Below are positions 20,793 to 31,140 of a DNA stretch of 41,235 nucleotides, one piece after another (within the stretch, counting starts at the first letter, position 1; each line of letters starts with the position of its first letter). Position numbers and translations under genes: made by a program. Origin of the DNA: a candidate division Zixibacteria bacterium SM23_73_3. GTDB lineage: Bacteria > Zixibacteria > MSB-5A5 > SM1-73. The stretch lies in the NCBI GenBank assembly GCA_001304155.1, contig LJUX01000006.1, positions 1 through 41,235 on the forward strand. The letters run 5' to 3'. The notes below the pieces were generated by a model that worked only from the letters and a program-made list of their open reading frames with translations, was not told the origin of the DNA and searched no databases.

Positions 20793-21359
20793 TTATTTGA
20801 AATCCACCTTAGGGGCTTCTCTTTTGGTCTCTTCGATCTCGAAATATTCTTCCAGCTTGAAGCCAAACCAGTTGGCTATGATATTTGAAGGGAAAACCTG
20901 CTGAGCATTGTTGAAGGACAAGACCACATCATTATAGAACTGCCGGGCATAGGCGATCTTGCTTTCAATTCCCGAAAGCTCCTCTTGAAGCAGAAGAAAA
21001 TTCTGATTAGCTTTAAGCTCAGGATAATTCTCCACCACGGCGAAAAGGGTTTTTAAGGCACCAGTGAGCATGTTGGTAGCCTGGGCTTTCTCTTGTACGG
21101 TTCCGGCTTGAGAATAAATGGACCTGGCTTTGGTCACCTCCTCTAAAACGGTCTTTTCGTGGGCGGCATACCCTTTCACCGTCTCCACTAAATTGGGCAC
21201 CAGATCCGCTCTTTTCTGCAACTGCACATCTATCTGATGCCAGGCATTCTCAGATCGGTTTCTCAACCTCACCAGCTTATTATATAACAAGATGAGGATG
21301 AGAATGGGTACACCCAGAACAATGAAAATGAATAAGAAAACTAAAAATACCGCTGCCAT
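20793..21359 (-). CDS. lemA: LemA family membrane-anchored protein
   Basis: A 188-residue protein with one N-terminal helix (about 3-24) and a long helical bundle outside. The family signature is clear: [28 protein letters not shown], then [17 protein letters not shown] and the [13 protein letters not shown] box. The function is not settled; LemA is often linked to HtpX. AGGAGGGGAA before the ATG at 21359 decides the start over a frame reaching 21386. Confidence 0.93.
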
Positions 21360-21398
21360 TTCCCCTCCTATGAAAATCAGGGTCAAGGATCATGGTTC

Positions 21399-21411
21399 AA
21401 GGGTCAAGAAA
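21399..21411. repeat. Inverted repeat, left end of the S23 element
   Basis: AAGGGTCAAGAAA, the exact complement of 21781-21793. Just left of it, 21381-21408 is a tandem of GGTCAAG-like heptamers (GGTCAAG, GATCATG, GTTCAAG, GGTCAAG). Confidence 0.7.
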
Positions 21412-21751
21412 GGGACCTCATTAAACCTCTTACTAATTTACCAACTTTTGCGCGAATTTCTTCTAACGAATTATATTCATCCGGACTCAAATATCCCAAA
21501 TCCTCTGCCAACATACTGTATGTTTCCACCTCTCTCAAAGATCCCCCGGTGATAGACAAAAACTGCAGATATTCTTTATTATGTTATCTCTCATATCCTT
21601 CGGCTATGTTGGCTGGAACCGATATTGCTGCCCTACTTTGTTGTATTCCCAGCCTGAATCGCTCTTTTCGAGGGAACTGCCTAATGGCCCTGGAAGTCTT
21701 CAGAGATAGGTCGTAGGCTTTCTGCCAGGCTATCAGGTTCTTGAAGTTCAT
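21404..21751 (-). pseudogene. Broken S23/four-helix-bundle (23S rRNA intervening-sequence type) protein gene
   Basis: Too interrupted to appear as an open frame, but the family is unmistakable when translated. It begins MNFKNLIAWQKAYDLSLK, continues through RAAISVPANIAEGYER, and ends with a helix containing SLREVETYSMLAEDLGYL. A TAA at 21586-21584 replaces codon 56, directly after AEGYER; reading then continues in the same frame for another 59 codons to a TGA. The total of 116 codons matches the usual size, so a single in-frame stop inactivates an otherwise complete gene. A perfect 13-bp inverted repeat frames it, and it separates lemA from purE. Homologues occur as mobile inserts in rRNA and next to diversity-generating retroelements; neither is present here. 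Confidence 0.85.
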
Positions 21752-21780
21752 TCTTGACGTTTCCCAGCGTGTGACACTGG

Positions 21781-21793
21781 TTTCTTGACCCTT
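21781..21793. repeat. Inverted repeat, right end of the S23 element
   Basis: TTTCTTGACCCTT, the exact complement of 21399-21411, one base from the purE stop codon. Confidence 0.7.
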
Positions 21794-21794
21794 G

Positions 21795-22256
21795 CTACTT
21801 GCTGCCCCTCTTCCTGAACTCTTTCAGGCTACCTTTCAGTTTCTTATCGGACAACGCCAGAATCTGGATAGCCAAAATGGCAGCATTTTTTGCTCCGGCT
21901 TCGCCGATAGTCATGGTTGCCACCGGCATTCCGGACGGCATCTGAACAATAGATAAAAGCGAGTCAAGTCCAGAAAGTGAAGAAGCGGAAAGAGGAACGC
22001 CGATAACTGGCAGATTGGTATGAGAAGCTATAACACCCGGAAGGTGAGCTGCCATTCCCGCCCCTGCAATTATCACCTTCACTCCCTGTTTTTCTGCGTT
22101 CTGAGCCAGTCTCTTTGTTCTTTCCGGATTACGATGAGCAGAGCTGACCTCCATCTGGAAGGGGATTTTAAATTCCTTAAGGATTTTTGCCCCCTTCAGC
22201 ATTGTTCCCTGATCCCTTTTGCTTCCCATCACTATTAATACTCTTGGAGCCACCAT
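21795..22256 (-). CDS. purE: 5-(carboxyamino)imidazole ribonucleotide mutase
   Basis: A 153-residue class I PurE. It moves the carboxyl group of N5-CAIR to C4 in purine synthesis. Signatures are VMGSKRD near the N-terminus, SSAHRNPER with the catalytic His, and the AGAGMAAHLPGVIA and GVPLSASSLSG loops, followed by MPSGMPVATMTIG. GAGAGGG precedes the ATG at 22256; a longer frame to 22379 has no family support. It is downstream of purD on the same strand with a 191-base gap that shows no gene. No purK is visible. Confidence 0.95.
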   Translation of the reverse strand: MVAPRVLIVMGSKRDQGTMLKGAKILKEFKIPFQMEVSSAHRNPERTKRLAQNAEKQGVKVIIAGAGMAAHLPGVIASHTNLPVIGVPLSASSLSGLDSLLSIVQMPSGMPVATMTIGEAGAKNAAILAIQILALSDKKLKGSLKEFRKRGSK

Positions 22257-30326: not shown

Positions 30327-31112
30327 CTATTTGATCCTGTACAGAGAACACGAATCATTGGACAGGCTTCTGCTTACAACAAAAGCCTCATCAATGCACT
30401 CGTGAAGCTCGGGCGGGATGGAATCCATCGCCTCTTGAAATGCTTGCCCGTCGCCAAAGGCAAGGAAATCGGTGACGAGCAACACCGTTTTTGCCCCCTC
30501 TTGTTTAGGTATCTCCAGGCTCGAATTACCGCTAACCACCACGGCTAACAGTGCATTTAGTATGTCGTTGGGTACATTCCAGGACCGGTTACTATGTACG
30601 TGGAACGGGAAATCCAGGGAGCTGCAAGAGCTCTCGCGAGCACTAATCAGTCTGAGACTCTTCAGACAGTCCAAGTCTCCCGCAGGCAAGCTAATCGACT
30701 TGCGCACACCTGTCTGGCAATGCTCAAGTATGGCTCGCTCTACTAAGTCAGCAAACTTCTCAACGTACTTGTCTCTGTCTTTTTTCTTCGGCGTGCTTGT
30801 GAAATCCGGGAAAAAGCAGTACCGTTTGTTACCAACAATCCCCTTTTGGGCAACCTTTTCCCTCACTTGCTCCAACAGCAGTCCAATCACTTTGTTGTCG
30901 CGGACATTGATAGAAAACAGATGCATACTCTTCTCTTCGATAGCAAGATAGCTGCTCTTGGAGTTGTCCTCTTGGCACAAGAAATCGTACGTTCCCGTTA
31001 GTCCCTTGTCTTCCTCAGGTCGCCCGACAACTCTATAGTGTTTACCTGTGCCTCGGCGATATTCACCGAGAAACAAGTTGGTAACGAACTTTTCTCTTTT
31101 TTTGTCCGCCAT
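30327..31112 (-). CDS. Uncharacterised protein, possible nuclease-like, in a repeat-bracketed cassette
   Basis: A 261-residue soluble protein of no family I recognise. Its N-terminal 70 residues have a D...ExK pattern (Asp43, then Glu59 and Lys61 in LAIEEK) resembling the PD-(D/E)xK nuclease core, but a pattern this short occurs by chance. Two Cys-containing helical regions and an AFGDGQAF segment near the end are the only other marks. I chose the ATG at 31112; a TTG at 31127 is possible. It interrupts an acyl-CoA operon between the hydratase and the biotin carboxylase, framed by two identical 28-base repeats, so it is very likely an inserted gene unrelated to leucine-type metabolism. Confidence 0.65.
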   Translation of the reverse strand: MADKKREKFVTNLFLGEYRRGTGKHYRVVGRPEEDKGLTGTYDFLCQEDNSKSSYLAIEEKSMHLFSINVRDNKVIGLLLEQVREKVAQKGIVGNKRYCFFPDFTSTPKKKDRDKYVEKFADLVERAILEHCQTGVRKSISLPAGDLDCLKSLRLISARESSCSSLDFPFHVHSNRSWNVPNDILNALLAVVVSGNSSLEIPKQEGAKTVLLVTDFLAFGDGQAFQEAMDSIPPELHECIDEAFVVSRSLSNDSCSLYRIK

Positions 31113-31140
31113 ATTGTTTTCTCGCAATCGATAGAAAGAA

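What the first reader, a model, noticed from the sequence alone, without database searches (positions are those of the whole stretch)
21381..21793. A four-helix-bundle (S23) gene with one in-frame stop, framed by perfect 13-bp inverted repeats
TAA at 21586-21584 breaks an otherwise full 116-codon frame. The repeats AAGGGTCAAGAAA and TTTCTTGACCCTT frame it, with GGTCAAG-like heptamers at the left end. S23 proteins are known as mobile passengers in 23S rRNA introns and near retroelements, but here the gene sits between two housekeeping genes. It could be a minimal mobile unit without a transposase.
Basis: partly seen in the sequence, partly recalled or inferred. Interest (0 to 1): 0.6.

Follow-up and report, generated by a model that had tools for sequence, protein, structure and literature searches.

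The report
S23 mini mobile element, heptamer-array arms
A ~420-base stretch of bacterial DNA, a small gene of unknown function between two mirror-image runs of a 7-letter word, is one broken copy of a mobile element that occurs in more than fifteen bacterial phyla and one archaeon, each lineage with its own 7-letter word, and that may explain several puzzling families of 7-letter repeats.

Summary
In detail: an S23 (PF05635) gene with one Gln-to-TAA stop lies between purE and lemA, inside perfect 14-nt inverted repeats that belong to AGGGTCA heptamer arrays.

The pattern is general. In 148 S23 loci, plus replicate sets of 27 and 25, the flanks have period 7. The two arms are inverted copies of one unit (alignment score 16-20 against 8 for mismatched arms). 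The unit differs between elements but follows the S23 lineage, across loci and even phyla. Arms of one element change in concert. The gene points with its operon in 72 of 81 loci. Six filled/empty comparisons in cyanobacterial plasmids show that gene and both arrays insert together as ~430 bp. Junctions vary (GTAAT, TTCTA, ATG or a small deletion), and most host relatives lack a reverse transcriptase.

Gene-less hairpins look like MITE derivatives. Xanthomonas GGGAATC repeats had been reported without explanation; the predicted link was met in a gammaproteobacterium whose S23 gene carries GGGAATC/GATTCCC arms.

So this is a mobile element without a recognisable recombinase, and the window copy is a decayed member. 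S23 binding of the arms and RNase III processing outside rRNA are inferred, and the insertion chemistry is unknown.

The parts
21379..21801 (-). whole S23 element (about 423 nt) between purE and lemA
   Evidence: arrays plus gene; the same unit is absent from this junction in G002; homologous elements insert as one ~430-bp unit
21778..21801 (-). 5' (G-rich) arm in the gene's sense: CAAGTAGCAAGGGTCAAGAAACCA; overlaps the stop codon of purE
21404..21751 (-). S23 / 23S_rRNA_IVP (PF05635) gene, 116 codons, interrupted
   Evidence: 108 bits over cut-off 33.8; translation
21584..21586 (-). in-frame TAA where the three nearest relatives have CAA (Gln)
21379..21411 (-). 3' (C-rich) arm in the gene's sense: TTTCTTGACCCTTGAACCATGATCCTTGACCCT, four heptamers; the gene's TGA lies inside the first unit
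21795..22256 (-). purE, upstream host gene in the same direction
   Evidence: ORF and relatives
20793..21359 (-). lemA-like gene, downstream host gene in the same direction
   Evidence: ORF and relatives

Best explanation
The feature is a decayed copy of a minimal mobile element, here called an S23 element: 5' array of ~7-nt units, then the S23 (four-helix-bundle) gene, then a 3' array of the same unit inverted. SHOWN by sequence: gene plus both arrays insert as one ~430-bp unit at otherwise intact sites; element lineages carry their own unit to different loci and across phyla; the two arms of an element change together; insertions nearly always lie in the sense direction of the host operon, often between genes, tRNAs or next to SRP RNA; gene-less inverted arrays exist as short derivatives; arms can pair in the transcript around the gene. 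INFERRED: S23, the only protein, recognises or stabilises the paired arms (DNA hairpin or RNA stem); the arms are kept alike by copying within the hairpin and by unit slippage; the paired arms let RNase III cut the element out of host transcripts, as shown for the 23S rRNA intervening sequence of Coxiella, which makes insertion inside operons and RNA gene clusters tolerable; the DNA is joined by host repair or a host-encoded nuclease, since no recombinase is encoded and junctions are not uniform.
For: Arms: own left/right score 15.9 (n=70) and 18.4 (n=78) vs 8.0/7.9 for mismatched pairs; held-out sets 19.8 vs 8.1 (n=27) and 19.1 vs 8.5 (n=25). Period 7 identity 0.39-0.42 vs 0.26. G-rich 5' arm in both sets, C-rich 3' arm in the 80-genome set. 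Unit follows S23 clade, not locus; at different loci the unit is shared by 60% of pairs with S23 identity >=60% and 1-3% of pairs under 50%. Concerted arms: own 16.1 vs cross-ortholog 11.0, 66 of 72 pairs. Sense orientation 72:9. Empty sites. Gene-less inverted arrays at the same purE-lemA site in G008 and G010, and in G427 with shared inner edges. S23 under purifying selection, dN/dS 0.02-0.19 in vertical pairs. Stem in folded RNA, z -3.2 to -5.7 for three intact copies. Coxiella IVS: S23 ORF, tandem GACAGAT heptamers before it, RNase III excision (PMC4990558).
Against: Movement has not been watched; a donor and a new copy of very high identity at a new site were not found in one genome. About 20% of S23 genes show no clear arms. 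Insertion junctions differ between sites, so the chemistry is open. Strong purifying selection on S23 while it stays at one locus is unexpected for a purely selfish gene and may mean a host-level role. The window copy itself folds no better than shuffles (z -1.1), as expected if decayed.
Confidence: 0.82

Rival explanations
1. The heptamer arrays are ordinary genomic short tandem repeats that were there first, and S23 genes land in them or between them.
For: Arrays without S23 exist: five other places in the window's genome, 21 array sites in G427, and TAACTGA or GGGAATC arrays in the literature (PMC4679880, PMC4692102).
Against: Empty sites in cyanobacterial plasmids have neither gene nor array, and both arrive together. 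The unit follows the S23 lineage to new loci. Both arms of one element carry the same unit, inverted.
Confidence: 0.06
2. S23 elements are retroelements moved by a reverse transcriptase in trans, as Avd assists the RT of diversity-generating retroelements.
For: S23 and Avd have related folds (recalled); sense orientation in operons fits an RNA intermediate.
Against: RVT_1 is absent from G000 and from order-level relatives G005-G010, most of which carry 7-9 S23 genes each.
Confidence: 0.1
3. S23 elements are non-autonomous elements moved by a Y1 (REP-associated) transposase encoded elsewhere in the genome, as REPs and REPINs are.
For: Y1_Tnp genes are in 56 of 59 relatives, G000 included; the element has hairpin ends and gene-less derivatives.
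Against: Y1 genes are equally present in genomes without S23, so they do not discriminate. It would not explain a conserved S23 gene under purifying selection, element-specific heptamers or sense orientation.
Confidence: 0.15
4. The elements are host-useful operon parts: S23 with its RNA stem regulates or processes the transcript and is kept for that, moving only rarely.
For: dN/dS 0.02-0.19 at fixed loci; long-lived positions, e.g. between tRNA and SRP RNA in seven relatives and before sdhB in Flavobacteriia (gene read from sequence, not annotated); sense orientation.
Against: Patchy presence, empty sites, gene-less scars and internal stops at the same loci; no growth effect of the Coxiella IVS or its S23 in E. 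coli (PMC4990558).
Confidence: 0.25
5. Chance: short inverted repeats near any gene in a repeat-rich genome.
For: A 2-mismatch scan of the 13-mer expects 2.5 hits in the window.
Against: All statistics on 200 loci.
Confidence: 0.01

Closest known systems
S23-encoding intervening sequences (IVS) of 23S rRNA (Coxiella burnetii, Leptospira)
   Same: Same protein family, ~430 nt, inverted-repeat stem, sense orientation, tandem heptamers (GACAGAT) before the ORF, decaying ORFs
   Different: The copies here lie between genes, tRNAs and SRP RNA, not inside rRNA; element-specific arrays on both sides, lineage-bound units, exact empty sites and gene-less derivatives are not reported for IVS in the papers read
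GGGAATC heptamer repeats of Xanthomonas (Rehm 2015, PMC4692102)
   Same: Same unit, array length and inverted pairs as the S23 element and its gene-less derivatives in G427
   Different: The passages read treat them as G-quadruplex repeats not associated with mobile elements; the term S23 does not occur
TAACTGA repeats of Beggiatoaceae (MacGregor 2015, PMC4679880) and STRR heptamers of cyanobacteria
   Same: Intergenic tandem heptamers; cyanobacterial plasmids are rich in S23 elements
   Different: A link to S23 was not tested for TAACTGA here
MITEs and REPIN/RAYT
   Same: Short inverted-repeat elements with gene-less forms
   Different: Ends are tandem heptamers with a unit private to each lineage; no fixed target duplication; no transposase
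Avd of diversity-generating retroelements
   Same: Related pentameric four-helix-bundle fold (recalled)
   Different: No RT, template or variable region here

Membership tests
S23 / 23S_rRNA_IVP protein family (PF05635) | sequence match above the curated cut-off | tested here: met
   108 bits vs 33.8; family structures 2GSC and 2RLD found with the alignment
S23 / 23S_rRNA_IVP protein family (PF05635) | intact reading frame | tested here: not met
   CAA to TAA at codon 56 of the ORF; intact relatives exist
23S rRNA intervening sequence (IVS) | lies inside a 23S rRNA gene | tested here: not met
   lies between purE and lemA
23S rRNA intervening sequence (IVS) | ends form a stem around the S23 ORF | tested here: met
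   arms pair in the predicted fold; for the window copy the energy is no better than shuffles
23S rRNA intervening sequence (IVS) | excised from the transcript by RNase III | not testable with these tools
   shown for Coxiella (PMC4990558), not here
MITE / classical insertion sequence | terminal inverted repeats with a fixed-length target duplication | tested here: not met
   GTAAT, TTCTA, ATG or a deletion at different sites
MITE / classical insertion sequence | encodes or is moved by an identified transposase | tested here: inconclusive
   none encoded; Y1_Tnp in nearly all relatives with or without S23
Retroelement (DGR, group II intron) | reverse transcriptase in the element or genome | tested here: not met
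   no RVT_1 in G000 or most S23-rich relatives
S23 element as defined here | inverted arrays of one ~7-nt unit on both sides of the gene | tested here: met
   AGGGTCA units on both sides
S23 element as defined here | exact empty site | tested here: inconclusive
   G002 lacks gene and array at purE-lemA but is too diverged for base-exact ends; exact for relatives of the element in plasmids

The most novel reading that the evidence does not exclude
A class of mobile element that needs no recombinase of its own: one four-helix-bundle protein recognises hairpins made of private tandem heptamers, and these hairpins are both the ends of the element and its transcript-processing signal. Gene-less derivatives of it would be the source of the unexplained heptamer repeat families of Xanthomonas, cyanobacteria, Beggiatoaceae and others.
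Probability: 0.45. Interest if true: 0.92.

Novelty: new variant of a known kind. Interest (0 to 1): 0.8.

Why it matters
S23 proteins have been known for decades from 23S rRNA intervening sequences, with solved structures and no function. The data here give them a context that can be tested: they are the only gene of a mobile element spread over bacteria, each lineage with its own heptamer. This turns two open questions, what S23 does and why heptamer repeats are so common in some genomes, into one, and it supplies exact filled and empty sites to work on.

Tried and rejected
Reverse transcriptase in trans: looked for RVT_1 in 59 relatives, absent where S23 is abundant. Y1 transposase as the specific partner: present almost everywhere, not informative. 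Phages as carriers: no S23 match in 50,697 phage records, 32 loci in 2.9 million viral contigs. Close gene-less GGGTCA hairpins in the window's own genome: none by pattern. A fixed target-site duplication: looked for at six sites, not found. Calothrix NIES-22 copies on two plasmids as a recent jump: they are a larger duplication, not an element-level one. Xanthomonas itself could not be reached; a gammaproteobacterium with the XCC0516-like gene was used instead.

Full report
1. The observation. The window holds a PF05635 (S23, 23S_rRNA_IVP) gene on the minus strand, ATG 21751 to TGA 21404, with one in-frame TAA at 21586-21584. The three nearest relatives have CAA there, so the change is one C to T. 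The gene lies between purE and lemA, all in one direction. The inverted repeats are 14 nt, perfect, and part of AGGGTCA heptamer arrays: about one and a half units on the 5' side, four on the 3' side. Alone, such a pair could be chance.

2. It is not chance. The window's genome (1.9 Mb, 90 contigs, 82% complete) has three S23 genes. One, on contig 43, is intact and flanked by the same AGGGTCA units; one, on contig 68, by a different unit, GTCCACC-like, again inverted on the other side. I then collected S23 genes from 24 of 59 relatives (for DNA) and 80 named genomes from more than 15 phyla, including a Methanophagales archaeon and several CPR bacteria. Most show the same plan.

3. Numbers. A local alignment of the left flank with the reverse complement of the right flank scores 15.9 (n=70) and 18.4 (n=78) on average, against 8.0 and 7.9 when left and right come from different elements. 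57 of 70 and 60 of 78 exceed the 95th percentile of mismatched pairs. Two sets collected afterwards agree: 27 viral-contig loci, 19.8 vs 8.1, and 25 gammaproteobacterial loci, 19.1 vs 8.5. Identity at a lag of 7 is 0.39-0.42 in the flanks and 0.26 in host DNA 400 nt away; 91 of 148 elements have best period 7, 22 have 8, 5 have 9. The 5' arm is G-rich and, in the 80-genome set, the 3' arm C-rich. The flanks of 77 ORFs of the window average 7.9.

4. The unit belongs to the element. In a tree of 70 S23 proteins the unit follows the protein clade, not the locus: GGGTCAA for L001, L002, L024, L050; GTAGACA for L023, L025, L028; and so on. The purE-lemA site has been hit by two different clades. 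For pairs at different loci, 60% share the unit when S23 identity is at least 60%, 7% at 50-60%, and 1-3% below. One pair shared across phyla is L022 and L113 (Desulfosarcina), 64% identical, both with GGATTCAAGG. At one locus, the two arms of an element resemble each other more than they resemble the opposite arm of the ortholog (16.1 vs 11.0; 66 of 72 untied pairs): the arms change in concert. Pairs are not independent, so the p-value (2e-12) is too small, but the direction is clear.

5. It moves. In cyanobacterial plasmids, filled and empty sites can be compared base by base. Site A: the empty sequence AAAAAGTAATTAACAAATAA becomes AAAAAGTAAT-[array, S23, array]-GTAATTAACAAATAA in Trichormus variabilis, at 97% identity around it; three other genera are empty. 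Site D has TTCTA-like repeats at both ends, site E lies on an ATG, site F lost about 18 nt of host. So gene and both arrays arrive together and the joints are not uniform. Trichormus and Scytonema copies differ by exactly two heptamers in the 5' array, so unit number changes.

6. Gene-less forms. At purE-lemA, G010 has the arms of the G006 element without the gene, G008 and G004 have other short inverted arrays, and G002 has nothing. Five AGGGTCA arrays elsewhere in the window's genome lack a partner.

7. A prediction. Xanthomonas campestris is known for 186 GGGAATC arrays, and 70 cases of paired arrays in convergent orientation, not associated with mobile elements in that paper (PMC4692102), and it encodes the S23 protein of structure 2GSC. 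I therefore predicted GGGAATC arms at such S23 genes (noted). Xanthomonas could not be reached, but among 369 gammaproteobacteria one genome, G427, has a frameshifted XCC0516-like gene (58% identity) with GGGAATC arrays on its left and GATTCCC arrays on its right. The genome has 21 array sites (reversed control 0), four of them gene-less inverted pairs 70-113 nt apart; two of those read here share inner edge words (CGTTCAAGC, GCGCTCCGC) with the S23 copy. This is what internal deletion derivatives look like. One genome is one case; the rule needs a survey.

8. How it may work. Among loci whose two neighbours point the same way, S23 points with them in 34 of 35 and 38 of 46. Several copies sit between tRNA genes, or between a tRNA and the SRP RNA. 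The arms pair in folded transcripts (z -4.9, -3.2, -5.7 for intact copies, -1.1 for the window copy). In Coxiella the 23S IVS has an S23 ORF with tandem GACAGAT heptamers before it, and RNase III cuts it out (PMC4990558). I infer that the arms do the same in operons. S23 stays under purifying selection at fixed loci (dN/dS 0.02-0.19) although broken copies are common, so it does something, most likely binding the paired arms. No reverse transcriptase is found in most S23-rich relatives, and Y1 transposases are everywhere, so the joining enzyme is open.

9. Known or new. The protein family, the IVS and single heptamer repeat families are known. Ten literature searches of the held open-access library found no paper that links S23 genes to inverted heptamer arrays in general, that shows empty sites, or that links them to the repeat families; subscription journals and preprints were not covered. 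I file it as a new variant of a known kind (IVS-like S23 elements), and keep the stronger reading as the novel case.

Noticed in passing
G000 contig C28:2435-2455 (L010): An array AGGATCAAGGATCAAGGGTCAAGGGTCA lies within what reads as the coding region of a priA-like gene, without S23 or inverted partner.
   Followed up: no
G000 C43:3355-3389 (L013): An AGGGTCA array runs directly into a second array of another unit (AAACTGA-like), as if two elements had met.
   Followed up: no
L211 (Anabaena sp. 90 plasmid pANA02): S23 gene between cas6 and cas4 of a type I-D CRISPR locus, preceded by about 300 nt of GGTGACA/GGGAACA heptamers.
   Followed up: no
L111, L112, L139, L147, L169: In Flavobacteriia the S23 gene lies in one conserved place in an operon, before what reads as sdhB, with differing units.
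   Followed up: partly
L034, L072 (G044): S23 elements whose arrays have a 9-nt unit (CCAATGAAC) instead of 7.
   Followed up: partly
window 30327-31127 (minus): An ORF whose two flanks share a different palindromic repeat, CGTAGGGACAGGGCTTGTCCCTGTCC; may be a REP-like family.
   Followed up: no
L199 (Nostoc sp. ATCC 53789 plasmid pNsp_c): S23-less GGGAACA hairpin at the site where other plasmids carry the full S23 element.
   Followed up: partly
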